A DNA stretch of 64,000 nucleotides from Opitutus terrae PB90-1 (GTDB taxonomy: Bacteria > Verrucomicrobiota > Verrucomicrobiia > Opitutales > Opitutaceae), in contig NC_010571.1 of assembly GCF_000019965.1 (NCBI RefSeq), forward strand, positions 2,489,001 through 2,553,000, in the 5' to 3' direction. How positions within the stretch are numbered: the first letter of the stretch is position 1; each line of letters opens with the position of its first letter. The position numbers and the translations under genes are program-made. Below, one piece after another: positions 1-41,271 of this stretch. Below the pieces are notes generated by a model. It searched no databases. It was given only the letters and a program-made list of their open reading frames with translations, and was not told where the DNA came from.

Positions 1-2227
1 GCTGTTCGACGTGCTCTTCGGCTACGAAGACGCGCCGCTGCCGGTGTTGGACCTCGGCGGCGGCGGGACGGCGCATCAGGTCGACGCGAATCTCGGGCTG
101 GGGAAGTACGACCTGAACCTGGCGCTGCAAGCCGAACGCGACGGCGGCATGACCGGTGCGCTGGTGTACAACGCGGACCTCCACGACGCCGGGTTCATCG
201 AGCAGATGATGCGGCACTACACGCGGATCGTCGCCGCGCTGGTCGCCGAGCCGGAGCGGCGGATCGACGAGATCGTGTTGCTCGATGCGCAGGAGGAACG
301 GCAGCAGCTCGAAGCCTGGAATGCCACGGACGCGCACGCGCCGCGCGAGCTGACGCTGCACGCGTTGTTCGCGGCGCAGGTGCGGCGGACGCCGGAACGG
401 ATCGCGATCAATTTTGGGGCGGAACAGCTGACGTATGCCGAGCTCGACGCGCGGGCGAATCGGGTCGCGCAGCGGCTGCGCCGGCTCGGCGTTGGACCGG
501 ATGCGCTGGTCGGGCTGTATTTCGAGCGCTCGATCGAGCTGATCGTCGCGATCCTCGGTGTGCTGAAATCCGGCGGTGGTTACCTGCCCTTTGATCCGAT
601 TTATCCGCCGGAGCGGATTGCCTTCATGCTGGCCGACGCGCAGCCGCGCGTGCTGCTGACGCAACCGGAGTGCCTCGAACGCGTGCAGCGCGTGATCGCG
701 ACGCTCGCGGCGGAAACCGGCGGTGGCGAGGTCGCGGCGGCGTTGACGGTCGTCGCGCTCGAGGATGGCGCGGCACTGCTGGCGGACGAGTCCGCAGCCG
801 CGCCGGAGGAGATCGCGCGACCCGAGCATCTGGCCTATTGCATCTACACCTCCGGCTCGACCGGCCGGCCGAAAGGCGCGCTGATCGAGCACCGACAGGT
901 GGTGCGGCTGCTCCTGAACGACCGGCTGCCGTTCGCGTTTGGCGCCGACGACGTGTGGACGCTCTTCCACTCGTGCTGCTTTGATTTTTCGGTGTGGGAG
1001 ATGTACGGCGCGCTGCTGTATGGCGGGCGGTTGGTGATCGTGCCGCGCGCGGTCGCCCAGGATCCGGCAGCCTTCGCGGAGCTGGTCGCACGCGAGCAGG
1101 TGACCGTGCTGAACCAGACCCCGACGTCGTTCTATCAATTCGCGCGCACGGTCCTGGCGCGGCGGGAGCAACTCGCGCTGCGGGTGGTGATCTTCGGCGG
1201 CGAGGCGCTCGCACCCCTGCACCTCCGCGAGTTCCGGGCTGCGTATCCGGCCGTCCGACTCGTCAACATGTACGGCATCACCGAAACCACGGTGCACGTG
1301 ACCGTCGAGGACGTGAGCGACGTGGACATCGCGGCGAATCGCAGCACCATCGGCCGGCCGATCCCGACGACGACGACGAATCTGCTCGACGGGCAGCTCC
1401 AACTCGTGCCGGTCGGCGTGCCCGGGGAAATCTGCGTGGGCGGCGAGGGCGTGGGTCGCGGTTACCTCAAGCGCGACGAGCTGACGCGCGCACGATTTGT
1501 GGTGAACCCCTACCGTTCGGCCGAACGGCTCTACCGCTCGGGGGACCTCGCGAAGCAATTGCCGGACGGGCGGATGATCTATCTCGGCCGGATCGATGAT
1601 CAGGTGCAGATCCGGGGCTTCCGCGTCGAGCTGGGCGAGATCAAGACGCGGCTGCTGCAACATCCCGCCGTGTCCGAGGTGGAGCTGATCGCGCGGCCGG
1701 GGGCGTCGGGCGCGCTGGAGCTTGTCAGCTACTACGTGCCCCGCACCGAGGTCGCGACGACCGAGCTGCGAAGGCATCTCGTCGCCACGCTACCGGACTA
1801 CATGGTGCCCTCGGCGTTTGTGCCTTTGCCGGCACTTCCGCTTACGTCCAACGGCAAGGTGGACCGTCGCGCGCTGCCCGAGCCCGCGGCGCTCGGGGAC
1901 GGTGCCGCGGCGGACTACGTGGCGCCCCGCACGCCGACGGAGGAGAACGTCGCCGCGATGTTTGCCGAGGTGTTGCGGCAGGAGCGCGTCGGCGCGAACG
2001 GCCATTTCTTCGAGCTCGGCGGTCATTCGCTGCTCGCGACCCAGCTGATGTCGCGGGTGCGCGAACGTTTCGGGCTCGAGCTGCCGCTGCGGCACGTGTT
2101 CGAGTCGCCGACGGTGGCGGCGCTGGCGGCGGTGATCGACGCGCAGGTCAAGGCCGCACCGAGCGCGTCCGCGCCGGCGAGCATTCCGCGCGCGGCGCGG
2201 CGAACCCTAACGAAGGGACCGGAGTGA
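1..2227 (+). CDS. Nonribosomal peptide synthetase, 3' part: (C end)-A(Thr)-T
   Basis: The gene is open at the left edge; the first whole codon is at base 2. It shows the last ~95 residues of a condensation domain, a complete adenylation domain (P-loop motif YTSGSTGRPKG near residue 282 of the visible part) and a thiolation domain whose phosphopantetheine serine is in FFELGGHSLLA (serine ~676). Pocket residues read by alignment to GrsA give DFWNIGMVHK, the established threonine code, so this module should load L-Thr. There is no epimerase or thioesterase, so the chain passes to the next protein. The stop overlaps the next gene start in GTGA (2224-2227). The protein starts outside the window, so earlier modules and the starter unit are unseen. 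Confidence 0.95.
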   Translation, partial: LFDVLFGYEDAPLPVLDLGGGGTAHQVDANLGLGKYDLNLALQAERDGGMTGALVYNADLHDAGFIEQMMRHYTRIVAALVAEPERRIDEIVLLDAQEERQQLEAWNATDAHAPRELTLHALFAAQVRRTPERIAINFGAEQLTYAELDARANRVAQRLRRLGVGPDALVGLYFERSIELIVAILGVLKSGGGYLPFDPIYPPERIAFMLADAQPRVLLTQPECLERVQRVIATLAAETGGGEVAAALTVVALEDGAALLADESAAAPEEIARPEHLAYCIYTSGSTGRPKGALIEHRQVVRLLLNDRLPFAFGADDVWTLFHSCCFDFSVWEMYGALLYGGRLVIVPRAVAQDPAAFAELVAREQVTVLNQTPTSFYQFARTVLARREQLALRVVIFGGEALAPLHLREFRAAYPAVRLVNMYGITETTVHVTVEDVSDVDIAANRSTIGRPIPTTTTNLLDGQLQLVPVGVPGEICVGGEGVGRGYLKRDELTRARFVVNPYRSAERLYRSGDLAKQLPDGRMIYLGRIDDQVQIRGFRVELGEIKTRLLQHPAVSEVELIARPGASGALELVSYYVPRTEVATTELRRHLVATLPDYMVPSAFVPLPALPLTSNGKVDRRALPEPAALGDGAAADYVAPRTPTEENVAAMFAEVLRQERVGANGHFFELGGHSLLATQLMSRVRERFGLELPLRHVFESPTVAALAAVIDAQVKAAPSASAPASIPRAARRTLTKGPE

Positions 2228-8200: not shown

Positions 8201-11200
8201 AGCTGCAGGCGAAAGCGTCCGGTCTGGCCGCCGAGCAGGTGCAGCTCTGGCAGGATCTGCACGAGGACAGCTACGCGGAAACGCGGGCGCTGGCGGACGA
8301 ACCGACCGCGAACGTGATCGGCTGGGACAGCAACTATACGGGGCAGCCGCTCTCCGACGCCGAGATGCGCGAGTACATCACGCATACGGTGGAGCGCGTC
8401 CGCGCGCTGCGGCCGCGGCGCGTGCTCGAGATCGGCTGCGGTACCGGCTTGCTGCTGGCCCCGCTGGCGCCGCACGTGGAGCACTATCTGGCGGCCGATC
8501 TTTCCCGCGTGGCGATTACGCGGCTGCAGCAACAGCTGGCGGGCCGGCCGGAATTCGCCCACGTTGAGCTGCGCGCGCAGCGGGCGGACGACTTTTCGGC
8601 GATTGCTCCGGCGAGCGTCGACGTGGTGATGCTCTGCTCGGTCGTGCAGTATTTCCCCGGGGTCGACTATCTGCTCAAGGTGATCGAAGGCGCGCTGCGG
8701 GTGCTGCGCCCGGGCGGCGCGATCTTCTTCGGCGACGTGCGCGTCCGCGCGCTCCTGCCGGCGTTCCACGCGTCGGTGCAGTTGTTCAAGGCGCCGGACA
8801 CGCTGACGGCCGCGGGGCTGCGGCGGCGCGTGCGGGCGGCTCTGCAGCGCGAACAGGAAATGGCGCTCGCGCCGGAGTTCTTCGTCGCGCTGCGTCACCG
8901 GTACCCGCAGATCAGCCGCCTCGAGGTGCGGCCGAAGCGCGGGCGAATTCAGAACGAAATGACGCGGTTCCGCTGCGATGTGACCGTGCATGTGGGCGGC
9001 AGCGGCGAGCCGACGCCGCAGTTCGCCTGGGAAAACTGGCCACGGCAGCCGATCTCGTGCGAGGACTTGCGCCGCCGGCTCGCGACCGGGGAAGAAGCGG
9101 TCGCGTTGCGCAACGTGGCGAATCCGCGCGTGCAGCGCGAACGCTACACGCTCTCCTGGCTGGATACCGCCCGCGCCGACGAACGCGTGGCGGATTTTCG
9201 CGCGGCGCTGGCGGCGGCCCCCGCGGCGGGCATTGATCCGGACGAGCTGAGCGCGTTGGGCGAAGAGCTGGGCTACGCGGTGGACACGGCGCTGGCCATG
9301 GACGGTGACGATGGTCGTTACGACGTGGTGTTCCGGAAACTTGACCCCGACGGCCGGCCGCTGCCGGCGCTTGATCTGACGCCCGTCGATCGCGCCGTGA
9401 AGCCCTGGGCGAGCTACGCCAACAATCCGCTGCACGAGAAGCTCGCGCGCGGGCTCGTGCCGCAGCTCCGGACGTTTCTGCGCGAACGGCTGCCAAGCTA
9501 CATGGTGCCGGCGGATTTTGTCGTGCTCGACGCGTTGCCGCAGCTGCCGAACGGCAAGGTTGACCGCCGCGCGTTGCCCGCGCCCGAGACGGCGGAGCTG
9601 GCGGAAGCGGATCACGTGGCGCCGCGCAATGCCACCGAGGCGCAGCTGGCGGCGATCTGGGGCGCGGTGCTCGGGCTCGGCCGCGTGAGCGTGACGGCCA
9701 ACTTTTTCGAACTCGGCGGGCACAGCCTGAAGGCCACGCAGGTCGTGAGCCGGATCTGCCGCGAGTTCGGCTGCGAGGTGGCGCTGCGCGAGCTGTTTAA
9801 CCAGCCGACGATCGCGGAGTTCGCCGCGACTCTCGAGACGGCGCGCCGCGCCCGGCACGAGCCGATTCCGCGCGTCGCCGACGCGGCGGACTATCCGCTC
9901 TCGCACGCGCAGCTGCGGCTGTGGGTGCTGGCCCAGCTGGAAGGGGCGCTCACAGCCTACAACATGCCGGCCGCGGTGCTGCTCGAAGGCGCGGTGGATC
10001 GCGCGGCGCTCGAGCAGGCCTTCGCGCAGCTGGTGCAGCGGCACGAGTCGCTGCGCACGACCTTCGTGCTCATCGACGGCGCGCCGCGGCAACGCGTGCA
10101 CCCGGCGCCGCTCGGCGAGCTGGAGTTCGCCGATGTCTCGGGCGGGCGCGAGCCGGAGGCGCAGGCGCGCGAACTGGCGCTGGCGCACGCGCGGCGGCCG
10201 TTCGATCTCGAGCGCGGGCCGCTGGTGCGGATCGCGTTGGTGCGGATTGCGCCCGACCGCCACGCGCTGCTGTTCAACATGCACCACATCGTGTCGGACG
10301 ACTGGAGCACGGGCGTGCTGGTGAACGAATTCATCCGGCGGCACGACGCGCTCGTGGCCGGCGAGGAGCCGGCGCTCGCGCCGCTGCGCGTGCATTACCG
10401 CGACTACGCGGGGTGGCAGAACGCGCGGCTGGCGGCGGACGGGATGGCGGAGCATCGCGCGTATTGGCGAGAGAAATTCGCTGGCACGCTGCCGGTGCTG
10501 CAGCTGCCGACCGACCGGCCGCGGCCGGCGGTGAAGAGCTACGTTGGCCGGACGCGGTCGTTCGCGCTTTCGCCGGAGCTGACGCGGGCGCTGCACGACC
10601 TCGCGCAGCGCGAACAGGCCACGTTGTTCATGGCGCTCACCGCGGCGGTCGACGTGTTGTTGCACCGCTATTCGGGACAGCGGGATCTGATCGTCGGCAG
10701 TCCGATCGCCGGCCGGACGCATCCCGACCTCGAGGACCAGATCGGGTTTTACATCAACACGCTCCCGTTGCGCGCGACGATCGATCCGGCGGCGGCGTTC
10801 ACCACGCTGCTGGCGCAGGTGCGGCAGACCGCGACGGAGGCGTATGAGCACCAGGCGTATCCCTTCGACCGGCTGGTCGACGATCTCGCGCTGGAACGCG
10901 ATGTCACGCGCACGCCGTTGTTCGACGTGGTCGTGGTGATGCAGAACGTGGATCCGTATGCGCTGGCGTTGAACGGCGTGAGCGTGCGGCCGTTCGTGGA
11001 CGATTTCGGCGGGAGCAAGTTTGACCTGCAGTTCAACTTCGAGGAACGCGAGGCGACGCTGCGAGGCTCCGTCGTGTTCAACACCGACCTGTTCGAGGAA
11101 GAGCGGATCGCGCGGATGATCGCGCATCTGACCACGCTGCTCGAGAGCATCGCGGCAGATCCTGGCTGCGCGGTGGGGCGGCTGGAGCTGCTGGGCGGGG

Positions 11201-30300: not shown

Positions 30301-33300
30301 ACTCGGCGCGAGCCAAGGCTACCTGGCGCCCCGGAACGAGCCGGAGCGCGACCTGGCTGCCGTGTGGAGCAGTGTGCTGGGCCGAACGCAGGTGGGCGTG
30401 CACGACAACTATTTCGCGCTCGGCGGCGATTCGATTGGTGCAATCCAGGTCGTGAGCCGGTTGAAGCGCGCGGGCTGGCAGGTGGACGTGCGCGATCTGT
30501 TCCAATTTCCGATCCTCGCCGAGCTGGCGCTCCGGCTGCGCCGCGGAGCGGATGGCGGCGTGGAGGAAGGTCCAATCGAAGGGCCGGTGGGACCCACGCC
30601 GGCGCAGGCGTGGTTTTTGGCGCAGCCTGTGGCCGATCGACACCATTTCAACCAGGCGGTGCTGCTCCGGCCGCGGAGCGACTTACGCACGGATGCGCTG
30701 ACCGCGGCGGTCACCGCGCTCTGGCGGCAGCATGATGCGCTCCGGACCGTGCTGCGCGAGGACGTGCTGCAAATCCTCCCGGCGGACACGCCGCCGCGCG
30801 TGATCGAGCTCGCGGTGCCGGACGAGCCGGCGCGGTGCGCCCACACCGAATCGATCCATCGGTCGTTTGATCTCGAACGTGGACCGCTGTTTGTCGCGGT
30901 GCTGTATCGAAGCGTCGGCGGCGACCGGCTGCTGCTGGCGGCGCACCATCTCGTGATCGATGGCGTGTCGTGGCGGATCCTCTTGGAAGACCTGGAGCGC
31001 GCGCTGCGGCAGCACGCGGCGGGTCAGCCGATCGATCTCGGGCCGCGGACGACCTCGATCCGGCGGTGGACGGAGGCCGCGCAGGCGCGGCCGAGCGAAC
31101 CGGCGGAGGCGTGGGTGTTATCTGAACCGGTGAGCTGGCGGCCGGCGCGGACGGAGGAGCCGAACGTCTTCGGCGCCACGCGCACACTCAGCGTGAGGTT
31201 GGAGGAGGAGTTGACGGGCGCGTTGCTCACCCGGGCGGGCACGGCGTATGGAACGCGGACCGACGAACTCCTGCTGCTCGCGCTCGCGCGGGCGTTGCGG
31301 CGCTGGCACGGTGGCGAACGCACGCGCGTGCTGCTCGAAGGCCACGGTCGCGATCCCGAGACCGGGCTGCCGGCGATCGAGCGCACGGTAGGATGGTTCA
31401 CCTGCCTTTATCCGGTGACGATTGGCGTCGAAGGCGAGGATCTCGGGGCGCAGCTCAAACGATTGAAGGAGGCGCTGCGCGCGGTGCCAGCCAAGGGCAT
31501 CGGCTATGGCATTGCGCGATATCTGCAACGCTCGGTCGCCCTGGCGAACGATCCGCCGCCGCCGGTGAGCTTCAACTATCTCGGTCAGTTCGGCGACGAA
31601 GCTGGCGGAAGGCTGCAGCTGGCGGACGAATCGAGCGGCGCGCCGATCGGCGCGCGCGTGGTGCGGAGCTGCGAGCTCGACGCGACGGCGATCACGGTGC
31701 GCGGACGCATGGAGCTGACGCTGACCTACGGCGCGTTGCGGCAGCCCTCGGCCGAGATGGAGCGCGTGTTGTCCGACTGGCGCGAAGAGATCGCGACGGT
31801 GGTGGCGCACTGCGTGGCGCAGACCCGGCCGGAGAAGACGCCGGCGGATTTCACCTCGCCCGGGCTGACGCTCGCGGGATACGAGGCGCTGTTGCGCGCG
31901 CGAAACTGGACGGCGGCGGACGTCGAGGACGTGTGCCGGCTCTCGCCGATGCAGTCGGGGCTGTTGTTTCAGTCGCTGCTCGAGACGGATTCGGACGCGT
32001 ATTTCGTTCAGATGGCGTATCGGTTGCGCGGCGCGATCGACGCGGGGCGACTCGAAGCGGCCTGGCAGGCGGTGGGCCGGCGGCATGCGATCCTGCGCGC
32101 GAACATCGTGCATCAAGACCTCGACGAGCCGCGGCTGATCGTCTGGCGGGAGCGGCGGGCGGAGGTGGCGACGACTGACCTGCGCGGGCTCGACGCGGCC
32201 GAGCAACGAAAGCGAATCGCGGCGGCGCGGGCGGCGGATCTGGCGCGCGGGTTTGATCTCGAGCGTGATCCGCTCTGGCGCGTGACGCTGTTCCGGACGG
32301 CCGATGATGCGGTCGAGCTCGTGTGGAGTTATCACCACGTGCTGCTCGACGGCTGGAGCCTGGGGCTCGTGCAGCGCGATTTGCTGGCGGCGTACGCGAC
32401 CGCGGAGCAAGCGCGCGAGCAGCCCGCGCCGGCTGCCTTTCGCGACTACGTGCGCTGGCTCGCGCGGCGCGATCCGGAAGCCTCGCGCGGATTCTGGAAA
32501 ACCTATCTGGCGGATTTCGAGCAAGCGACCGGCTTGCCCGTGCTTGGAGCGAGGACCGCGGCGGCCGGCTACGTGGCGGCGAGTCATCCGCTCGCACTGG
32601 GCGGTGAACTGAGCCGTGGACTGCGCGCGCTCGCGACGGCGCGAGGCGTGACCCTGAACACGATGCTGCAAGCGGCGTGGGGGATCGTGTTGGCGCGCTA
32701 CAACCGGACCGGCGACGTGGTGTTTGGCGCGATCGTGTCGGGCCGGCCGGCGGATCTGCCCGGGGTCGAGGAAATGGTCGGGCCGTTCATCTGCGCGGTG
32801 CCAGTGCGCGTCCGGGCGGAACCGACGGCGCGGCTGCCCGAGCTGCTGCGGCGGTTGCAGGACGCGGCGCTGGCAAGCGAGGCGCACCACCACCTGCCGA
32901 TCGCCGAGATCCAGACGCTCACGCCACTCGGCCGACAGCTGTTCGATCACCTGCTGGTGTTTGAAAATTATCCGGTGGATCGCGGGCTCGCCGGTGCCGG
33001 CGAGGCGGGATGGCGGGTGGAGGCGGTGGAGGCACACGACCGCACGCACTATGACCTCGACGTGACGGTCGCACCCGACGAGGAGCTGACAATCACGTTT
33101 GGTTTCAACCGCAACGTGTACCCGCCCGAGCAGGTGGCGCGCGTGGCGGAGCATCTGCGGCGCGTGCTGCAGCAGATGGTGGCGGCGCCCGAAGCGCAGG
33201 TTGCAGACTATGACCTGGCGACGGCGGAGGAGACGCGACTGGTGCTGGAGACCTTCAATGCCACTGCGGTGCCGTGGCCGCGGGAGCAGACGCTGGTCGA

Positions 33301-36300
33301 CTTGCTCGACGAAGCGGCGCGTCGCTGGCCCGAGCGAACCGCGGTGGTTTTCGGGGAGGAGGCGCTGAGCTATCACGAGCTCCACGCGCGGGCCGACCGG
33401 CTCGCGGCGGCGCTCCGCGCGCGCGGCGTCGGGCCGGAGGTCTTGGTGGGGCTACTGATCGAGCGCTCGGCGGAGATGATCGTCGGGGTGCTCGGGGTGT
33501 TGAAAGCGGGCGGGGCCTACCTGCCGCTCGACCCGGCGTATCCGTCGGATCGGCTGGCGTTCATGATCGAGGACGCGAAACCGCGCGTGATTGTCACCCA
33601 GCGGGCGCTCGCGGAGCGCGTGCCGCGGACCGCGGCGGGTGCGGAGCGGTTGTTGATCGACGGCGAACTCGACGTGGGGGCGGCAGCGACCGGCGGCGAG
33701 CAAGCCGCGACGCTGCGGCCGGAGCATCTCGCGTATCTGATCTACACGTCGGGTTCGACGGGAAAGCCGAAAGGCGTCGCCGTGGAGCATCGGTCGCTGG
33801 TCAACGCCGCGATGGCGTGGCGGGTCGGCTACGGATTGCCGGCGATGGACGTGCGGCTGCTGCAGCTGGCGAGCCTGTCCTTCGATGTGTTTGCCGGCGA
33901 CCTGATCCGCACGCTCACCAACGGCGGGATGATGGTGGTGTGCGACGCCGAGACGCGGCTCGATCCGGCCGCGCTGTGCGAACTGTTGGTGCGGCACCGG
34001 ATCACGTTCTTCGAATCGACGCCGGGACTGATTCTCCCGCTGATGGAGCACGTGCGGCTGCAGGGGGTGAAGTTGCCGGACCTGCGGATCCTGGTGTTGG
34101 GCTCCGATACGCTCGCGATCGGCGAGTATCGGCGGCTGCTCGCGGACTTTGGCGCGGCGATGCGGATCGTGAACAGCTACGGCGTGACGGAGGCGACGAT
34201 CGACACGAGCTTTTTTGAGTCGCGACCGGGCGCACCGGAGCTCGAAGAGCTGGGCGAGGGCTCGACCCCGATCGGCCGGCCGATGGCGAACCAGGAGCTC
34301 CATGTGCTGGACGCGCGGTTGCGACCGTGTCCGCCGGGGGTGGTGGGCGAGCTGTTCATCGGCGGCGCAGGCGTGGCGCGGGGTTATCACGCGCGACCGG
34401 AGCTGAACGCGGAGCGGTTCGTTTGCTGCGAGTTGGGGGGCGAGCCGCGCCGGCTGTATCGTACCGGCGATCTGGCGCGTTGGCGGGCGGATGGGAATGT
34501 TGATTTCCTCGGCCGGGGCGACTGGCAGGCGAAGGTGCGCGGGTTCCGGGTGGAACCGGGCGAAGTCGAGGCGGTGCTGCGGCGGCACGCCAACGTACGC
34601 GACGTGGTGGTGGGCGTGCGCGTGGTGGGCGGGGCGAACGCGCTGGTGGCGTACGTCGTGGCGGCCGAGTGGACGCCGGCGGAGTGGCGGGCGCACGTAC
34701 TGGCTGAGCTGCCCGACTATATGGTGCCCGCGTATTGGGTGAAGCTGGAGCGGCTGCCGTTGTCGCCCAACGGCAAGATCGACCGGCGCGCGCTGCCGGC
34801 GCCGGGCGCGGAGGCGGCCGTGCGCGGCACGGCGTTCGTGGCGCCGCGCACGCCGGTGGAGGAGCAACTCGCGGCGATCTGGCGCGAGGTACTGCAGGTC
34901 GAGCGCGTGGGGGTGGAGGATGATTTCTTCGAGCTGGGCGGGCACAGCCTCAAGGCGATGCAGGTGGCCACGCGCGTGCAGCAGGCGTTCGGCGTGCGGC
35001 CGGCGCTGCGGGCGTTTTTCGCGGCGCCAACGATCGCGGCGCTGGCGCAGACGGTTGGGGCAACCGCGACGGGCGCGGCGCAGGTGATGGCGATTCCGCG
35101 CGCCGAGCCACGCGCGGACTACGAACTCTCGTTTGCGCAGCAACGGCTCTGGCTGCTGCACCAGCTCGGCGGCGCGTCGGCGTACAACATGCCGGAGGCG
35201 TATATGCTCAACACCCGGCTCGATGCGGACGCGCTCGAGCGGGCGTTCCAGCAGTTGGTGGCGCGACACGAGGCGCTGCGGACCGCGTTCGTGGTGGTGA
35301 ATGGCGAGCCCCGGCAGCGGATTCATGCGCAAGTGCCGTTTGCGCTGCGCCGCATCGATCTGTCCCGCGAGCCGGCGCCGGACGAGCGGGCGCGCGAATT
35401 GGCCGACCGCGAAGCCGCTGCGCCGTTCGATCTCACCCAGCCGCCGCTGCTGCGGGCCACGCTGGTGACGCTGGGGGCGGAGCGCTGCGCGTTCCTGTTC
35501 ACGATGCATCACATCGTGGGCGACGGCTGGTCGGGGAACGTCCTGTATCGCGAGCTGTTCGCGCTGTATGCGGCGTGCCGGGCCGGCGCGCCGGATCCGC
35601 TGCCGCCGCTGCGGATTCACTACAAGGATTTCGCGGTGTGGCAAAAGACGCAGCGGTTCGACGCGGACGAGGCGTACTGGCTCACGGCGCTCCGCGGCGC
35701 GCCGGCCGCGCTGATGCTGCCGTATGACTTTCCGCCGCGCGCCGAGCGCGATTTCCGCGGCGACGTGGTGCGCGGCGCGATCGCGCCGGCGCAGCTGGTC
35801 GGACTGCAGCGGCTCGCGCGCGAGCGGCGGACCACCGTGGCGAATGTCGTGCTCGCGGTCTTCAAGCTGGTGCTGTTCCAGATCACGAAGCAGGAGGACT
35901 TCTGCGTGGGCGTCAGCATCGCCAACCGGCAGCACGCCGATCTCGAGAACCTGATCGGGTTCTTCGTGAACATCCTGCCGGTGCGCGCGCGATTGAACGA
36001 GGCGATGGAGTTCGACGAACTGCTGGCGCAGGTGAGCGCGGCCGCCACTGCGGCATTCGAGCATCAGGAGTATCCCTTCGACCTGCTCGTGCAGAAACTG
36101 AACCCGTTGCGCGCGAGCAACCGGCAGCCGCTGCTCAACGTGATCTACGGTTACCAGAACTTCAGCGACGTGCATGTCGCGGTTGGTGGCGCCGCGACGG
36201 CGGGGGCTGCGGGTGAACCGGCGCTGGATGTCACGCCGCTGGCGCACGCGTTCCGGACGTCGAAGTTCGACCTCACATTGTTCGTCGGCGAGGAAGCCGG

Positions 36301-36421
36301 CGGGCTGGCGTTGACGCTCGAGTATGACACCGGGCTGTTCCGCGCGGAGACGGCCCGCCGTTACGTAGAGCTACTGGAGCGGTTTGCCGGAATGGTCGCG
36401 GACGCGGCGACCGATGAATGA
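27365..36421 (+). CDS. Nonribosomal peptide synthetase C-A-T-E-C-A(Orn/Dab)-T-C
   Basis: The start is GTG in a 4-base overlap. Order in 3018 residues: C (HHIVADG ~158); A (core ~638, code DALWLGGTFK, same as the first A domain of the gene at 2224, valine-like); T (Ser ~1023, LGGDS type); epimerase (HHLVIDG ~1194, then EGHGR, RTVGWFT and FNYLGQF); C (YHHVLLDGWS ~1657), which resembles DCL domains that follow epimerases; A (core ~2127, code DVGEVGSIDK, one residue from the ornithine code DVGEIGSIDK and close to diaminobutyrate codes); T (Ser ~2528); and a final C (HHIVGDG ~2715) that ends the protein. The last C domain has no A domain here, and its partner is the next protein, so one module is split over two proteins. 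The product should contain a D-configured aliphatic residue followed by Orn or Dab. Confidence 0.95.
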   Translation: MIRPDDQDAELLDLLLDTAGVPTVPRLVRRPEGTAPVLSAAQQRMWFLQQFDPASPAYNLVTAVRWHGALEVAWLEAAVNDVVQRHEVLRTAFASEDGRAVARFFADARVTVRCVTGDPASVQTEEAGRPFELSVAPLLRLAVARSSAAEHVVVLTMHHIVADGWSMDVLVREIGTAYRARAEGRPPTWPELPVQYADFAAWQHASLESGVRATQLAYWRRQLANPPTLALPTDRPRPARPDFAGAVHGFTLPTDVVAGVRRLAQTEDATLFMVLLAGFQALLHRLTGQDDLVVGAPVANRTRSELEPLIGFFVNTLVLRADLVNAATFRQLVQQVKRTAIDAYAHQDLPFEELVHELQPERHLSQNPLFQVMFSVQAAAREVLALPGVAIEALKSDARTAKFDLLLGFEEAADAIHGGIEYRTTLFDAATIERWALCLVTLLRAAVQAPDAPLRTLPLLPDSERRRLLVEWNPAGRDYPERSLAALFAEQVATSPDATALTCAGTRLTYAELDARSNRLAHVFVGAGIGPDVCVAVCLERSVELIVALLGIVKAGGAYAALEPDYPEERLQWMLADLAAPLVITSEPWGAKLQRVAGTMARPPTVLAFERERERIAAHPATAPAVAATIDDLAYVSYTSGSTGRPKGVAVPQRGVVRLVRGADYARFGADEVFLQFAPVAFDASTLEIWGPLLNGARLVVMPAGRPSLEELGRVVREERVTTLWLTAGLFRAMVEERLADLRGVKQLLAGGDVLPIAAVERVLRELPGCRLINGYGPTENTTFTCCHTVVAADLAGGSVPIGRPIAATTVQVLDAALQLVPVGVPGELFTGGDGLARGYVGQPALTAEKFLPNPFGAGRLYRTGDRVRWRADGTLEFLGRFDEQVKVRGFRIEPGEVEAALCAERGVAAAAVVVRADAGAKQLVGYVVAESDGESLRERLKARLPDYLVPAVIVRLEALPLTANGKIDRAALPAPGARLGASQGYLAPRNEPERDLAAVWSSVLGRTQVGVHDNYFALGGDSIGAIQVVSRLKRAGWQVDVRDLFQFPILAELALRLRRGADGGVEEGPIEGPVGPTPAQAWFLAQPVADRHHFNQAVLLRPRSDLRTDALTAAVTALWRQHDALRTVLREDVLQILPADTPPRVIELAVPDEPARCAHTESIHRSFDLERGPLFVAVLYRSVGGDRLLLAAHHLVIDGVSWRILLEDLERALRQHAAGQPIDLGPRTTSIRRWTEAAQARPSEPAEAWVLSEPVSWRPARTEEPNVFGATRTLSVRLEEELTGALLTRAGTAYGTRTDELLLLALARALRRWHGGERTRVLLEGHGRDPETGLPAIERTVGWFTCLYPVTIGVEGEDLGAQLKRLKEALRAVPAKGIGYGIARYLQRSVALANDPPPPVSFNYLGQFGDEAGGRLQLADESSGAPIGARVVRSCELDATAITVRGRMELTLTYGALRQPSAEMERVLSDWREEIATVVAHCVAQTRPEKTPADFTSPGLTLAGYEALLRARNWTAADVEDVCRLSPMQSGLLFQSLLETDSDAYFVQMAYRLRGAIDAGRLEAAWQAVGRRHAILRANIVHQDLDEPRLIVWRERRAEVATTDLRGLDAAEQRKRIAAARAADLARGFDLERDPLWRVTLFRTADDAVELVWSYHHVLLDGWSLGLVQRDLLAAYATAEQAREQPAPAAFRDYVRWLARRDPEASRGFWKTYLADFEQATGLPVLGARTAAAGYVAASHPLALGGELSRGLRALATARGVTLNTMLQAAWGIVLARYNRTGDVVFGAIVSGRPADLPGVEEMVGPFICAVPVRVRAEPTARLPELLRRLQDAALASEAHHHLPIAEIQTLTPLGRQLFDHLLVFENYPVDRGLAGAGEAGWRVEAVEAHDRTHYDLDVTVAPDEELTITFGFNRNVYPPEQVARVAEHLRRVLQQMVAAPEAQVADYDLATAEETRLVLETFNATAVPWPREQTLVDLLDEAARRWPERTAVVFGEEALSYHELHARADRLAAALRARGVGPEVLVGLLIERSAEMIVGVLGVLKAGGAYLPLDPAYPSDRLAFMIEDAKPRVIVTQRALAERVPRTAAGAERLLIDGELDVGAAATGGEQAATLRPEHLAYLIYTSGSTGKPKGVAVEHRSLVNAAMAWRVGYGLPAMDVRLLQLASLSFDVFAGDLIRTLTNGGMMVVCDAETRLDPAALCELLVRHRITFFESTPGLILPLMEHVRLQGVKLPDLRILVLGSDTLAIGEYRRLLADFGAAMRIVNSYGVTEATIDTSFFESRPGAPELEELGEGSTPIGRPMANQELHVLDARLRPCPPGVVGELFIGGAGVARGYHARPELNAERFVCCELGGEPRRLYRTGDLARWRADGNVDFLGRGDWQAKVRGFRVEPGEVEAVLRRHANVRDVVVGVRVVGGANALVAYVVAAEWTPAEWRAHVLAELPDYMVPAYWVKLERLPLSPNGKIDRRALPAPGAEAAVRGTAFVAPRTPVEEQLAAIWREVLQVERVGVEDDFFELGGHSLKAMQVATRVQQAFGVRPALRAFFAAPTIAALAQTVGATATGAAQVMAIPRAEPRADYELSFAQQRLWLLHQLGGASAYNMPEAYMLNTRLDADALERAFQQLVARHEALRTAFVVVNGEPRQRIHAQVPFALRRIDLSREPAPDERARELADREAAAPFDLTQPPLLRATLVTLGAERCAFLFTMHHIVGDGWSGNVLYRELFALYAACRAGAPDPLPPLRIHYKDFAVWQKTQRFDADEAYWLTALRGAPAALMLPYDFPPRAERDFRGDVVRGAIAPAQLVGLQRLARERRTTVANVVLAVFKLVLFQITKQEDFCVGVSIANRQHADLENLIGFFVNILPVRARLNEAMEFDELLAQVSAAATAAFEHQEYPFDLLVQKLNPLRASNRQPLLNVIYGYQNFSDVHVAVGGAATAGAAGEPALDVTPLAHAFRTSKFDLTLFVGEEAGGLALTLEYDTGLFRAETARRYVELLERFAGMVADAATDE

Positions 36422-36433
36422 GCGATTTTGCGC

Positions 36434-39400
36434 ATGAAACTCGGCCAATTCTCCATTGTCGGCGACGGTGATGCGCAGCGTGCGCTGCGGGACCAAGTCG
36501 CGGGCTTCAACCGCACCGCGACGGCGTATCCGCGCGACAGCACGGTGCACGCGGAGTTTGCCGCGCAGGCGGCGCGGACGCCGGACGCGGTCGCGGTTTT
36601 CGCGGGCGAGCGGAGCTATACCTACGCGCAGGTGGCGGCGCGGGCGAACCAGCTCGCGCGGCTGTTCGTCGAGCGTGGACTGACGTCCGAGGGGTTTGTC
36701 GGGGTGATGCTCGAGGATGTTTATGGTCTGGTGACGACGCTGCTGGGAGTGCTGGAGGCCGGCGGCGCGTACCTGCCGCTGGACGCCGACACGCCGGCAG
36801 CGCGGCTGGAGTACATGCTGCGGGAAACGAAGGCGCGATTTCTCGTCGGCGGCCGGGCGGATATCCGGCTGTTGAACCGGCTGCACTGGAGCTGTCCGGA
36901 TCTGACGGTGCTGCTGTGCGTCGACAGCGAGGACGTGCAGGCCGAGATCGAGCCGACGGGCGAGTTGATGCGAGAAGAGGTGTGGGATTTCGTGGGCAAG
37001 GAACTGGTCGACGAGATCTCGGGCGGCGGCTGGAAAAGCAGTTACACCGGCGAGTGGCTGAGTCGCGAGGTGATGGCGGCGTACGGCGAAAACGTCCGGC
37101 GGAAAGTCGCGTCGCATGTGACGGCGGACTCACGCGTACTGGAGATCGGGTGTTCGTCGGGCATCAGTCTGTTCGGGCTCGCGCCGCAGGCCGGGTTCTA
37201 CCTCGGCACGGACCTGTCGGGGGAGATTTTGCGCTGGACCCGCGGCGAGGTGGAGCGGCGCGGACTGAAGCAGGTCCGGCTGGAACACCTGCCGGCGCAC
37301 GCCGTCGCGCGGGCGGGCGAGCGCGGGTTCGACGTGGTGGTGATGAACAGCGTGCTGCAATGCTTCAGCGGTCACAACTACCTGCGGACCGTGTTGCGGC
37401 AGGCGATCGATCTGATGGCCGACGAAGGGGTGGTTTTTCTCGGTCACATCTGGGACGAGGAGCGGCGGCTGGAGTTCATCCGCGATCTGGCGGAGTTCCA
37501 GCGCACGAACGCGGGGAAAAATTTTCGCACGCACCTCGACCGGTCGGAGGATCTATTCGTCGCGCGCGAGTTCTGGAACGATCTGCAGGCAGAATGGCCG
37601 GAGATCGAGCGCATCGAGTATTCGGCGCTGCTCGGTGAGGTGGAGAGCGAGCTGACGCGGTTCGGCTACGATGCGATGCTGCACATCCGCAAGCGGTCGA
37701 CCGCGGGCGGCGCGGCGGCGAAAGAGCGACCGGCGCGCCGGCGTCACCAGCTGGATCGGCGGGCGATCGCGGACCAGTTGCCGGCGCCGGTGCCGGAGCG
37801 CAGCGGGCCGGCGCGGCTGGCTTATGCGATCTACACCTCCGGCACAACGGGGAAACCCAAGGGCGTGCTGGTTGAACACCGGCCGATCCTGAGGCTGGTG
37901 CGGAACACCAACTACCTCACGCTGCGGCCGGACGATCGGATCCTGATGACGGGCGCGCTTTCGTTTGATGCGTCGACGTTCGAAATCTGGGGCGCGCTGC
38001 TCAACGGGGCCGCGCTCTGCCGGCCGGGCGAGCGCGACATGCTCGACAGCGCGGTCATGAAGGCGTTGATCCGCCGGCACGGCGTGACCGTGATGTTTTT
38101 GACCACGGGACTGTTCAACCAGCTGGCGGAGGCGGATGTGTCGCTGTTCGCGGGGCTGCGCTGCCTGCTGACGGGCGGCGAACGGATGTCCACGCACCAC
38201 GTGAACGCGGTGCGTGCGGCGCACCCGGCGCTGGCGTTGAGCAACGTTTACGGGCCGACGGAGAACACGACGTTCTCGACGCATTTCCCGATCACGCGGG
38301 AGTTCACGGACGACGTGCCGATCGGTTATCCGATCGCGAACACGACGGCCTATCTCCTCGATGCGCAACGGGCGCCGGTGCCTCCGGGCGTGGTGGGCGA
38401 ACTCTATGTCGGTGGTGACGGGCTCGCGCGCGGCTATCTGGGCGATGAGGCGTTGACGCGGGAAAAGTTCGTTTCGCATCCCTTCGCGCCCGGGGAGCGG
38501 CTGTATCGGACCGGCGACCTCGGCCGTTGGCGCGACGACGGCGCGGTGGAATTCTGCGGGCGCAAGGATCTGCAGGTGAAGATCCGTGGGTTCCGGATCG
38601 AACTCGGCGAGATCGAGAGCCGGCTGCAGCAGCTTGGCACGGTGAAGGAGGCAGTCGTCGTGGCGCGTGATTTCGGCGACGGCACGCTGACGCTGGTGGC
38701 GTATCTGCGGGGCACGGCGGAGCTGGACCTGGAGGCCGTGCGCGCCGAGTTGGTGCGGCAGCTGCCCGAGTACATGATTCCCGCGCACTTTGTCGCGCTG
38801 GAGGCGTTTCCGCTGACGAGCAACGGCAAGGTGGACCGTCGAGCGCTGCCGCTGCCAGACCGCGGCGCGGCGGCGCAGCGGGCAATCGTGCCGCCGAGTA
38901 ACGAGGTGGAACGGGAGTTGACGGCGCTGTGGACGGGAGTGCTGGGCCGGTCGGACTTCGGCGTGACGGACAACTTCTTCGCGTCGGGCGGACACAGTCT
39001 GAAGGTGATGAAGCTCGTGTCCGGCATGCGCCAGAAGTTCGGGGTCGAGCTGCCGCTGGCCGCCGTGTTCAAGGCGACCACGATTCGCGAGCAGGCGCGG
39101 GTGGTGCTGGACGCTGCGCGTTTCGGCGTGGAGGGCATCGACGAGCCGCGGGTAAAGCTGAACGACGCCACGGGCGCGCCGGTGTTCGTGTTTCCGCCGG
39201 GCACGGGCGACGCGCTGGGCTACCTCCAACTGGCCGAGCAACTGCGGCCCTACGCGGTGTACGGGTTCAACTTCATCGCGGCGGAAACGCGGATCGCCGA
39301 CTATGCGACACTCGTGCAGGAGGTCGATCCGGCCGGACCTCACGTGCTGATGGGGTATTCGGCGGGCGGCAATCTCGCGTATCACGTCGCGGCCGAGCTG

Positions 39401-39847
39401 GAACGCCGGGGGGCGCGCGTCGCCGGCGTGGTGATGGTGGATTCCGGCCGCTTGCTGCGGCCGATGACGATTCCGGCGGGCGAGGTCGAGCGGGTGACCG
39501 CGGAGTTCCTCGGGCACGAGAGCGTGCGTGACCACGTGGCCACGCCGGTGCTGCGCGAGAAGGCGACGCGGCTGATCGCGTGCTATTTCGACTATCTGGC
39601 CCGCGCCCTGGACGAAGCCGTGATCACCGCGGATATCTACGGACTGGTTTCAGCCGAACCGGGAGAACATTATGACGCAGAGGGGCGGCTGTTCGTCAGC
39701 CGCCGCGGCTGGAACGAGGCGACGCGGGGCCGCTACGTCGAAGTGGTGGGCGAGGGCACCCACAACGTGATGCTTGCGCCACCGCATCTGGGACCGAACG
39801 CGGCGCAGCTGCGGACGACGCTGGAAAGATTGCGATCGAGCGGGTGA
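36434..39847 (+). CDS. Terminal nonribosomal peptide synthetase A(MT insert a2-a3)-T-TE
   Basis: I chose ATG 36434, 12 bases after the previous stop; an in-frame TTG at 36428 is possible. The protein begins directly with an A domain, the partner of the C domain that ends the previous protein. The A domain starts normally (motifs a1-a2, to ~110), is then interrupted by a ~300-residue methyltransferase (GGGWKSSYTGE, SAM motif VLEIGCSSG ~236), and resumes with a3 (YTSGTTGKPKG ~466). The code is DAFFLGVTFK, similar to isoleucine-type pockets (tentative). The carrier serine is ~855. The C-terminal thioesterase has Ser976 in GYSAGG and His1110 in GEGTHN, so this is the release step, by cyclisation or hydrolysis. 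The site of methylation cannot be told from sequence. Confidence 0.94.
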   Translation: MKLGQFSIVGDGDAQRALRDQVAGFNRTATAYPRDSTVHAEFAAQAARTPDAVAVFAGERSYTYAQVAARANQLARLFVERGLTSEGFVGVMLEDVYGLVTTLLGVLEAGGAYLPLDADTPAARLEYMLRETKARFLVGGRADIRLLNRLHWSCPDLTVLLCVDSEDVQAEIEPTGELMREEVWDFVGKELVDEISGGGWKSSYTGEWLSREVMAAYGENVRRKVASHVTADSRVLEIGCSSGISLFGLAPQAGFYLGTDLSGEILRWTRGEVERRGLKQVRLEHLPAHAVARAGERGFDVVVMNSVLQCFSGHNYLRTVLRQAIDLMADEGVVFLGHIWDEERRLEFIRDLAEFQRTNAGKNFRTHLDRSEDLFVAREFWNDLQAEWPEIERIEYSALLGEVESELTRFGYDAMLHIRKRSTAGGAAAKERPARRRHQLDRRAIADQLPAPVPERSGPARLAYAIYTSGTTGKPKGVLVEHRPILRLVRNTNYLTLRPDDRILMTGALSFDASTFEIWGALLNGAALCRPGERDMLDSAVMKALIRRHGVTVMFLTTGLFNQLAEADVSLFAGLRCLLTGGERMSTHHVNAVRAAHPALALSNVYGPTENTTFSTHFPITREFTDDVPIGYPIANTTAYLLDAQRAPVPPGVVGELYVGGDGLARGYLGDEALTREKFVSHPFAPGERLYRTGDLGRWRDDGAVEFCGRKDLQVKIRGFRIELGEIESRLQQLGTVKEAVVVARDFGDGTLTLVAYLRGTAELDLEAVRAELVRQLPEYMIPAHFVALEAFPLTSNGKVDRRALPLPDRGAAAQRAIVPPSNEVERELTALWTGVLGRSDFGVTDNFFASGGHSLKVMKLVSGMRQKFGVELPLAAVFKATTIREQARVVLDAARFGVEGIDEPRVKLNDATGAPVFVFPPGTGDALGYLQLAEQLRPYAVYGFNFIAAETRIADYATLVQEVDPAGPHVLMGYSAGGNLAYHVAAELERRGARVAGVVMVDSGRLLRPMTIPAGEVERVTAEFLGHESVRDHVATPVLREKATRLIACYFDYLARALDEAVITADIYGLVSAEPGEHYDAEGRLFVSRRGWNEATRGRYVEVVGEGTHNVMLAPPHLGPNAAQLRTTLERLRSSG

Positions 39848-39981: not shown

Positions 39982-41271
39982 ATGAATGTCTTCCAGCGAC
40001 GTGAATCCGAGGTGCGATCGTATATCCGCTCGTTTCCCGTGCTGTTCGAGAAGGGCCGGGGCGCGCAGCTGTTCGATCGTGAGGGTCGCAGCTACCTCGA
40101 TTTTTTCGCCGGCGCCGGGGCGCTGAACTACGGGCATAATCCCGAGCCGATGAAGCAGGCGCTGATCCGTTATCTGGAGACGGACGGAGTAACGCACAGC
40201 CTCGACATGGCGACCGAGGCCAAGCGGCGGTTTCTCGCGCTGTTCGAGGAGATCATCCTGAAACCGCGTGGACTGGACTACAAGGTGCAGTTCACCGGGC
40301 CGACCGGCGCGAACGGCGTCGAGGCGGCGTTGAAGCTCGCGCGCCGCGTGAAGCAGCGGCGGAACGTGGTGGCGTTCACCAATGCGTATCACGGACTCAG
40401 CCTCGGCGCGCTCGCGGCCACCGCCAACGAGCACTATCGCCACGAAGCCTGGGTGCAGCGGCAGGATGTTTCGTTCGTGCCGTATGATGGCTACCTCGGG
40501 CCGGACGTGGACACCGCGGCGGTGCTGCGCAAGCTGCTGGACGATGGCAGCAGCGGCGTGGATCTGCCGGCGGCGGTGATCCTGGAGACCGTGCAGGCAG
40601 AGGGCGGGGTGAACGTCGCCTCGCATCGCTGGTTGCAGGAAGTGGCGCGGATCTGCCGCGAACGCGACGTGCTGCTGATCGTCGACGACATCCAGGTCGG
40701 CTGCGGCCGGACCGGGACGTTTTTCAGTTTCGAACGCGCGGGATTCACGCCGGACATCGTGGTGCTGTCGAAGTCGATCAGCGGCTATGGGCTGCCAATG
40801 TCGCTCGTGCTGATCCGGCCCGATATTGATCAATGGCAGCCGGGTGAACACACGGGAACGTTTCGCGGCAACAATCTCGCATTCGTGGCGGCGGCGGAAG
40901 CGCTCAGTTTCTGGGCGACGGCGGAGTTCGCGGAGACGGTGAGTGCGCGGGGCCGCCGGCTCGGCGCGTCGTTGCAGGATCTGATCGGCGATTTTCCGGC
41001 GCAGCTGACGCGGGTGCGCGGCGTGGGGATGATCTGGGGCCTGGAGTTCAAGCAGTCGGCGGTATGCCAGGCGGTGGCCCGTGAAGCGTTCGCGCGACGG
41101 CTGGTGATCGAAACCTGCGGATCAGAGCGCAACGTGCTGAAGTTTTTGCCGCCGTTGATCACCGACGAGACGATGCTGGCGGCGGGCGTGGAGATCGTGC
41201 GCGAGTCGATCCGCCAGGTCGTGGAGTATGCCGGCACGAGCGTCAGCCAGAATGCGGCGGGGGAAGGGTGA
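39982..41271 (+). CDS. ectB: Diaminobutyrate--2-oxoglutarate aminotransferase (EctB type)
   Basis: This is a PLP class III aminotransferase of 429 residues that should make L-2,4-diaminobutyrate from aspartate semialdehyde, with glutamate as amino donor. It shows the EctB hallmarks: ESEVRSYIRSFP at the N-terminus, LDFFAGAGALNYGHN, VQFTGPTGANGVEAALKLAR, the cofactor region LLIVDDIQVGCGRTG, the lysine motif VVLSKSISGYGLP, and GEHTGTFRGNNLAF. Neither ectA nor ectC is beside it, so ectoine synthesis is not indicated locally. It lies 134 bases after the thioesterase gene on the same strand. With an Orn/Dab-type pocket in the synthetase and a second acidic pocket, the natural reading is precursor supply for the peptide. 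No clear ribosome binding site is seen before the ATG. Confidence 0.9.
   Translation: MNVFQRRESEVRSYIRSFPVLFEKGRGAQLFDREGRSYLDFFAGAGALNYGHNPEPMKQALIRYLETDGVTHSLDMATEAKRRFLALFEEIILKPRGLDYKVQFTGPTGANGVEAALKLARRVKQRRNVVAFTNAYHGLSLGALAATANEHYRHEAWVQRQDVSFVPYDGYLGPDVDTAAVLRKLLDDGSSGVDLPAAVILETVQAEGGVNVASHRWLQEVARICRERDVLLIVDDIQVGCGRTGTFFSFERAGFTPDIVVLSKSISGYGLPMSLVLIRPDIDQWQPGEHTGTFRGNNLAFVAAAEALSFWATAEFAETVSARGRRLGASLQDLIGDFPAQLTRVRGVGMIWGLEFKQSAVCQAVAREAFARRLVIETCGSERNVLKFLPPLITDETMLAAGVEIVRESIRQVVEYAGTSVSQNAAGEG

What the first reader, a model, noticed from the sequence alone, without database searches (positions are those of the whole stretch)
36434..39847. Adenylation domain interrupted between a2 and a3 by a methyltransferase
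The methyltransferase (SAM motif near residue 236) sits before the P-loop motif of the A domain, not at the common a8-a9 site. Insertions at a2-a3 are a minority class of interrupted A domains. The same pathway also has a standard a8-a9 insertion (gene at 2224), so both types can be compared in one line.
Basis: partly seen in the sequence, partly recalled or inferred. Interest (0 to 1): 0.65.

Follow-up and report, generated by a model that had tools for sequence, protein, structure and literature searches.

The report
Peptide-building enzyme with a nested methyltransferase
A bacterial peptide-assembly enzyme carries a methyl-adding domain inserted at an uncommon place inside its amino-acid-loading domain; it very probably adds a methyl to the backbone nitrogen of the last amino acid, and it belongs to a scattered family whose methyl-adding parts appear to share one origin.

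Summary
Gene 36434-39847 (1137 aa) is A(N)-M-A(C)-T-TE; the methyltransferase (M) splits the adenylation (A) domain between core motifs a2 and a3. The first ~157 residues are a true A-domain half. The A code is DAFFLGVTFK (Ile, in some products Val). M is a TioS-type backbone N-methyltransferase: PDB 5WMM is its best match by sequence and fold. An Ile/Val side chain offers no O, N or S, so I infer N-methyl-Ile/Val as last residue. The kind is known: thalassospiramide TtcC/TtmB are listed as a2-a3, N-methylating.

New here: the 20 a2-a3 M domains found (Opitutaceae, Chlorobium, Lewinella, Tistrella, Sandaracinus and others) form one clade apart from 41 a8-a9 M domains, while their A cores fall into five groups. 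The lineage's active site is altered: the middle glycine of the SAM loop, whose Gly-to-Ala change stops beauvericin N-methylation, is Ala/Ser in 19 of 20. Purifying selection and N-methyltyrosine in thalassospiramides argue that it is active.

The parts
36434..39847 (+). terminal NRPS module protein A(N)-M-A(C)-T-TE, 1137 aa, no C domain of its own
36503..36943 (+). N-terminal half of the A domain (residues 24-170; a2 LEAGGAYLPLD at 36752-36784)
   Evidence: profile 3-149; structure
36956..37693 (+). inserted SAM-dependent methyltransferase (M), residues about 175-420, TioS-type backbone N-methyltransferase family
   Evidence: borders read from the model, approximate
37136..37162 (+). SAM motif I VLEIGCSSG (middle Gly of GxGxG replaced by Ser241)
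37346..37366 (+). acceptor-site motif NSVLQCF (TioS NSVVQYF; Tyr636 replaced by Cys310)
37766..38881 (+). rest of the A domain, a3-a10 (residues 445-816), specificity code DAFFLGVTFK (last K assumed)
38915..39103 (+). thiolation (T/PCP) domain, Ser855
39179..39844 (+). thioesterase domain, Ser976 in GYSAGG (Pfam match covers residues 916-1004; the rest by position)
35132..36418 (+). last condensation domain of the upstream protein (27365-36421), which should serve the A-M-A-T-TE protein in trans (limits approximate)
   Evidence: four Condensation stretches in that protein; place of the last one inferred from the T domain at residues 2500-2563
8290..8994 (+). comparison: standard a8-a9 M domain in gene 2224-13143 of the same pathway, A code DIWEMTADDK, 33% identical to the a2-a3 M over the matched stretch

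Best explanation
The gene encodes the terminal module of a PKS/NRPS line. The A domain, split by M after the second core motif, folds around the insert and activates L-Ile (or Val). The aminoacyl group is loaded on Ser855 of the T domain. The M domain then methylates the alpha-nitrogen of the T-bound residue with SAM. The condensation domain at the end of the upstream protein joins the peptide to this N-methylated residue, and the TE releases the product. Shown: architecture, insertion site, predicted fold, code, homology, purifying selection. Inferred: activity, N-methylation, its timing (after loading, as reviewed for interrupted A domains), C domain in trans, product. The module is a new member of the thalassospiramide TtcC/TtmB kind of a2-a3 interrupted A domain.
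For: Split A domain at a2-a3. M is closest to TioS A4-M4-A4 (5WMM) among PDB sequences (profile E 3.8e-39 over profile positions 29-269 of 275; next hit 2.8e-11) and by fold (M alone, Foldseek E 2.3e-18 against 1.8e-11 for the next; Z 21.1, rmsd 4.8, 247 aligned, next entry Z 19.0). TioS M4 N-methylates Val and, less, Ile (PMC6670151, passages). Code DAFFLGVTFK goes with Ile, in some products Val (PMC2533009 Table 1; PMC13122637; passages); two sister modules in other Opitutaceae read DAFWLGGTFK, Val type. Six of nine TioS substrate-contact residues are identical (Gly199, Trp200, Met214, Ser306, Gln309, Leu407). Homologue on Tistrella pTM1, 360 of 1023 aligned columns identical, insert included (found); TtcC/TtmB are listed as a2-a3, N-methylation (PMC11355689 Table 2, passages); the last thalassospiramide residue is N-methyltyrosine (PMC3705361, passages). 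dN/dS of M is 0.11-0.31 against 0.12-0.25 for the A core in the 8 pairs computed, lower than the A core in 5 and higher in 3.
Against: The SAM loop is GCSSG, not GxGxG; a Gly-to-Ala change there abolished N-methylation in BEAS. TioS Trp543, Asp664 and Arg666 are Tyr217, His338 and Trp340 here. No product of this cluster is known. According to PMC5577590 (2017, passages) the thalassospiramide clusters had not been tied to their products by knock-out or heterologous expression, so that link is correlative; and calling the pTM1 protein TtmB is my inference from architecture. M can be under constraint for folding reasons alone, and the 8 pairs are not independent.
Confidence: 0.82

Rival explanations
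1. The M domain has lost SAM-dependent activity and stays as a structural insert; the last residue is plain Ile/Val.
For: Middle Gly of the SAM loop is Ser241; a Gly-to-Ala change at this place kills BEAS. Three of nine TioS contact residues differ.
Against: An altered loop of the same kind (GCASG) sits in the Tistrella thalassospiramide-type module, whose product class has N-methyltyrosine. Ala or Ser is found in 19 of 20 members of one lineage, while Glu237, Gly239 and Gly243 are invariant in the 20. M is about as constrained as the A core.
Confidence: 0.1
2. The M domain methylates the side chain (O or S), as the a2-a3 M domains of TioN and MarQ do.
For: Two of the four a2-a3 examples in the review table are S-methylating (PMC11355689). 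TioS Gln635 is Glu in 12 of 20 a2-a3 M domains, the 12 of the Tistrella/Chlorobium group, but Gln here.
Against: The code here is Ile/Val, and the sisters read Val: no O, N or S in the side chain. M is of the TioS backbone type.
Confidence: 0.05
3. The insertion is a chance alignment or frame artefact, not a nested domain.
For: None found.
Against: One uninterrupted frame with the same layout in own, L014, G313 and Tistrella proteins; confident model with continuous A fold.
Confidence: 0.01

Closest known systems
Thalassospiramide terminal module TtcC / TtmB (A6-Mb-A6, a2-a3, N-methylation)
   Same: Same insertion site (PMC11355689 Table 2). The Tistrella pTM1 protein that I take for TtmB is a stand-alone A-M-A-T-TE protein behind a protein that ends in a C domain, with its M in the same clade and Ala in the SAM loop.
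   Different: Code DAIDVGAVGK there (N-methyltyrosine in the product) against Ile/Val here; the A cores lie in different groups; 35% identity overall.
TioS A4-M4-A4 (thiocoraline, PDB 5WMM), backbone N-methylation at a8-a9
   Same: Same methyltransferase family and fold; Val/Ile class substrate.
   Different: Insertion site a8-a9 there, a2-a3 here; SAM-loop Gly565 and Trp543, Tyr636, Asp664, Arg666 replaced.
TioN (thiocoraline) and MarQ (maremycin), A-Ms-A at a2-a3
   Same: Same insertion site (PMC11355689).
   Different: S-methylation there, for TioN of Cys. Whether their M domains belong to the same clade was not tested: no sequence at hand.
a8-a9 interrupted module in gene 2224 of the same pathway
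   Same: Same methyltransferase family, 33% identical over the matched stretch.
   Different: Other insertion site, other clade, GCGTG loop and QY motif.

Membership tests
interrupted A domain, a2-a3 type | A domain split between core motifs a2 and a3 by another enzyme domain | tested here: met
interrupted A domain, a2-a3 type | complete A domain outside the insert | tested here: met
   a2-a10 found as sequence; region before a2 inside the profile match 3-149
interrupted A domain, a2-a3 type | both adenylation and methylation activity | not testable with these tools
   needs protein assays
thalassospiramide TtcC/TtmB kind (A-Mb-A, a2-a3, N-methylating) | M domain in the same clade as the Tistrella a2-a3 M | tested here: met
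   20 of 20 a2-a3 M in one clade, support 100/100, also on 219 core columns; rests on the pTM1 protein being TtmB (inferred)
thalassospiramide TtcC/TtmB kind (A-Mb-A, a2-a3, N-methylating) | terminal A-M-A-T-TE protein, preceding protein ends in a C domain | tested here: met
   own; Tistrella and two others: (3 of 4 upstream ends scanned show C; in Chlorobium L019 none was seen)
thalassospiramide TtcC/TtmB kind (A-Mb-A, a2-a3, N-methylating) | N-methylated last residue in the product | not testable with these tools
   product unknown
TioS-type Mb N-methyltransferase | sequence and fold homology to the 5WMM M domain | tested here: met
TioS-type Mb N-methyltransferase | SAM loop GxGxG | tested here: not met
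   GCSSG; middle Gly in 41 of 41 a8-a9 but 1 of 20 a2-a3 rows; so filed as homologous and working alike, not as a canonical a8-a9 Mb
TioS-type Mb N-methyltransferase | nine substrate-contact residues of TioS M4 | tested here: inconclusive
   6 of 9 identical; list of residues from the Fig. 6 legend of PMC6670151
TioN/MarQ Ms (S-methylating, a2-a3) | side chain with a sulphur to methylate | tested here: not met
   code DAFFLGVTFK, Ile/Val
TioN/MarQ Ms (S-methylating, a2-a3) | M domain homologous to TioN M | not tested
   no TioN or MarQ sequence at hand

The most novel reading that the evidence does not exclude
All N-methylating a2-a3 inserts descend from one ancestral insertion of a TioS-type methyltransferase. 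The insert (with or without the A half before it) has since been coupled to at least five different A cores (Ile/Val, the Tistrella/Chlorobium type, Thr, the DIWELTADDK type and the DVLYLGGIVK type), and its active site was rebuilt so that it works without the middle glycine of the SAM loop. It would be a naturally portable N-methylation cassette with its own catalytic rules, and the a8-a9 residue rules would mispredict it as dead.
Probability: 0.5. Interest if true: 0.6.

Novelty: new member of a known kind. Interest (0 to 1): 0.42.

Why it matters
One pathway holds both insertion types of the same methyltransferase family, so site and active-site effects can be compared in one host. The family view gives a usable rule (a2-a3 inserts of this clade are probably backbone N-methyltransferases, whatever the A code), a warning (residue-based prediction would call the SAM loop dead), and natural examples of one insert lineage working with several A cores, which bears on NRPS engineering.

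Tried and rejected
Considered and rejected: side-chain methylation (Ile/Val code); dead M domain; chance split. Tried without result: Opitutaceae product literature (listing only: headed by palmerolide papers, with a genome announcement among the rest; none read); sandarazol papers (none of the 8 listed holds the word); the JBC thalassospiramide paper (not held); TioN/MarQ sequences (no route found). The tree of the A halves before the insert (111 columns) is weak: its best tree splits the a2-a3 halves (3 label changes, 2 forced by well-supported branches), yet holding them together is not rejected (p-AU 0.345, where the bootstrap had not settled and the two Sandaracinus halves were left out; with them gave 4 changes, 2 forced). 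So I cannot say whether the insert moved alone or with its N-half. A second, degenerate N-half before M in Sandaracinus (12.9 bits; best of 200 shuffles 8.6) would fit transfer with the N-half but is weak.

Limits of the survey: the search profile A2 was built from a2-a3 members only, so a8-a9 counts are lower bounds; actinobacteria, cyanobacteria and Bacillota were sampled only through plasmids, of which I fetched a few. In one search, 62 M rows were used (one, L029, fits neither class and was left out); three a8-a9 rows (L050, L055, L056) rest on the downstream flank alone. In one search, one a2-a3 A core (L017, cut by the contig end) is missing, so 19 of 20. In one search, of 16 genomes with a match, G169 fits no class, six have only short matches in small frames, and the second match of G313 was not fetched.
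Full report
What is there. The gene at 36434-39847 encodes 1137 residues. Pfam finds AMP-binding in two pieces, a methyltransferase between them, then AMP-binding_C, a carrier domain and a thioesterase; a genome search puts the two A pieces at profile 1-138 and 151-384 with about 800 bases between them. A profile made from seven uninterrupted A domains of the same window gives 3-149, then M, then 149-527. So the insert lies after a2 (residues 107-117) and before a3 (467-477) (motif names recalled). The AlphaFold model (14 sequences, pLDDT 83.8, pTM 0.80) keeps one A fold around the insert: GrsA 1amu aligns over residues 12..814 with 497 residues (Z 52.0, rmsd 9.5), 6oyf over 10..712 with rmsd 1.5 and 419 residues. 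Apart from the ends, the stretches under pLDDT 50 are 183-198 and 423-428, near the two joints.

Context. The window is part of a PKS/NRPS line that begins upstream of it (genome 2457901 onwards) with an AMP-ligase/PKS protein. A-domain codes in order (amino acids partly recalled): Ser type upstream; then Thr type (DFWNIGMVHK, Thr in PMC2533009 Table 1), Val type, DIWEMTADDK (with the a8-a9 M), Thr type; a PKS module with its own methyltransferase; Thr type, DAFVFAGICK, Val type, DVGEVGSIDK (the near code DVGEIGSIDK is read as ornithine in PMC3992020, passages), and last DAFFLGVTFK. The upstream protein 27365-36421 has four condensation-type stretches for two A domains; by position one should be an epimerase (inferred; its sequence holds HHLVIDGVSW) and the last one a C domain left without its own A. 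The terminal protein has no C domain. Its N-terminus MKLGQF is shared in form, M(K/R)(I/L)x(D/N/Q), by 15 of 20 a2-a3 proteins; the other 5 have their A domain within a longer frame (start codons not proven). Of four upstream proteins of relatives scanned, three end in a C domain (Opitutaceae L014, Telmatospirillum L016, Tistrella L012) and one does not show it (Chlorobium L019). A docking role of the peptide is inference.

What the methyltransferase is. With the a2-a3 M alignment, TioS A4-M4-A4 (5WMM) is by far the best solved relative (E 3.8e-39; next 2.8e-11), and the M model alone also finds it first (Z 21.1 against 19.0 for the next entry). The M of the a8-a9 module in the same pathway is 33% identical over the matched stretch. 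It is thus of the backbone N-methyltransferase family. The A code goes with Ile, in some cyanopeptolins Val (PMC2533009, PMC13122637, passages), and the two closest modules (L014 = G425, and G313) have the Val-type code DAFWLGGTFK. These side chains offer no heteroatom. N-methylation is therefore the best reading, though not shown.

Relatives. A scan of GTDB contigs with the M pair found seven loci, and all seven have M at a2-a3: Opitutaceae (65% in M), Lewinella, Telmatospirillum, an uncultured bacterium, Tistrella mobilis pTM1, Chlorobium, a soil proteobacterium; Sandaracinus pSa001 came from the plasmid collection. Samples of whole genomes, classed by flanking A-domain profile positions: Verrucomicrobiota, a2-a3 in 2 of 387 genomes, a8-a9 in 8 of 387 (E up to 1e-10); the phylum of the Lewinella genome, a2-a3 in 8 of 345, a8-a9 in 2 of 345 (E up to 1e-20); Pseudomonadota, a2-a3 in 2 of 398, a8-a9 in 8 of 398; the order of Tistrella, a2-a3 in 3 of 3. 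The search profile favours a2-a3. Both Opitutaceae relatives also have a second M match: in G425 25 kb away on the same contig and of a8-a9 type; in G313 at 643112, not fetched and so not classed.

One insert lineage, several A cores. In a tree of 62 M domains the 20 a2-a3 rows form one side of a branch (100/100; 100% of 200 bootstrap trees; as low in 0 of 500 shuffles), and so they do on 219 columns filled in at least 80% of the rows. In the tree of A cores (a3 to a8; 78 rows) the 19 a2-a3 cores lie in five groups, and well-supported branches force five changes of the label; holding them together costs 189 log-likelihood units (p-AU 1.2e-94). Own and its two sisters sit in a branch with Val-type A domains, the Lewinella one (L015) among Thr types, the Sandaracinus and G677 ones beside the DIWEMTADDK modules that have M at a8-a9, L047 beside a plain core of similar code; the fifth group, 12 cores of the Tistrella/Chlorobium type, has no such neighbour. 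For the A halves before the insert one clade is not rejected (p-AU 0.345), although the best tree splits them. So the insert persisted while the core behind it was exchanged, or it was moved repeatedly into the same site; the data do not separate the two. The Sandaracinus module has a normal N-half and then a weak second one before M, which would fit transfer of N-half plus M.

A reshaped active site. Mapped on TioS M4 (contact residues from the Fig. 6 legend of PMC6670151): the middle Gly of the SAM loop is Gly in 41 of 41 a8-a9 rows, and Ala (16) or Ser (3) in 19 of 20 a2-a3 rows; Tyr636 is Tyr in 35 of 41 and in 1 of 20; Gln635 is Gln in 41 of 41 and in 7 of 20; Asp664 is Asp in 40 of 41 and in 5 of 20; Arg666 is Arg in 30 of 41 and in 3 of 20; Trp543 is Trp in 34 of 41 and in 0 of 20. 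The one a2-a3 row with the a8-a9 Gly and Tyr is Sandaracinus, the first branch of the clade under the drawn midpoint root. In the fungal BEAS the Gly-to-Ala change at this place gives N-desmethylbeauvericins. Read naively, this would call the present M dead. Against that: thalassospiramides have N-methyltyrosine as last residue, added with the final two modules (PMC3705361, passages), TtcC/TtmB are listed as a2-a3 N-methylating (PMC11355689 Table 2), and the Tistrella module has GCASG. Its architecture (C domains, two full A domains, KS without a detected AT, KR, final C; then A-M-A-T-TE) fits the thalassospiramide line as described in PMC5577590 (passages), but I did not match accessions. dN/dS of the M insert (0.11-0.31) is like that of the A core (0.12-0.25) in the 8 pairs computed, lower in 5 and higher in 3 (for distant pairs synonymous sites are near saturation, and the pairs are not independent).

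What is known and what is new. a2-a3 insertion is known (TioN, MarQ, TtcC, TtmB; PMC11355689, PMC8949500, passages), as is the a8-a9 type. I saw these primary reports only through the reviews. Searches of the held open-licence library (listings, with passages of some of the papers) brought up no statement on a common origin of the a2-a3 M domains or on their SAM loop, and no example from Verrucomicrobiota; most subscription papers are not in that library. The window's gene is a new member of a known kind. The family-level result (one M lineage, several A cores, altered active site) is the part a specialist may find of use.

Noticed in passing
L025 (Sandaracinus amylolyticus pSa001), protein residues 2031-2304: Two A-domain N-halves in a row before the a2-a3 methyltransferase, the second weak and without a readable a2 motif (12.9 bits against a best of 8.6 in 200 shuffles).
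   Followed up: partly
window 39982-41271: EctB-like diaminobutyrate--2-oxoglutarate transaminase directly behind the terminal module gene; may supply diaminobutyrate for the DVGEVGSIDK module, whose code otherwise reads ornithine-like.
   Followed up: no
G430, G597, G601, G649, G657, G751 (L045, L060-L064): Six genomes in the phylum of the Lewinella genome have stand-alone A-M-A proteins of similar length (frames of 1181-1194 aa) with codes DGHDIGAVxK, in one group with the Tistrella thalassospiramide-type module. G430 is the Chlorobium record; that the other five are Chlorobi too is inferred from the trees.
   Followed up: partly
L029 (G169:C1:577848-578540): A TioS-like methyltransferase in a 9042-residue frame followed by the start of a new A domain, fitting neither a2-a3 nor a8-a9.
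   Followed up: no
window 47315-48742 and 50910-52574: Two frames of 475 and 554 aa without a Pfam or NCBIfam match at 1e-5; not shown to be genes.
   Followed up: no
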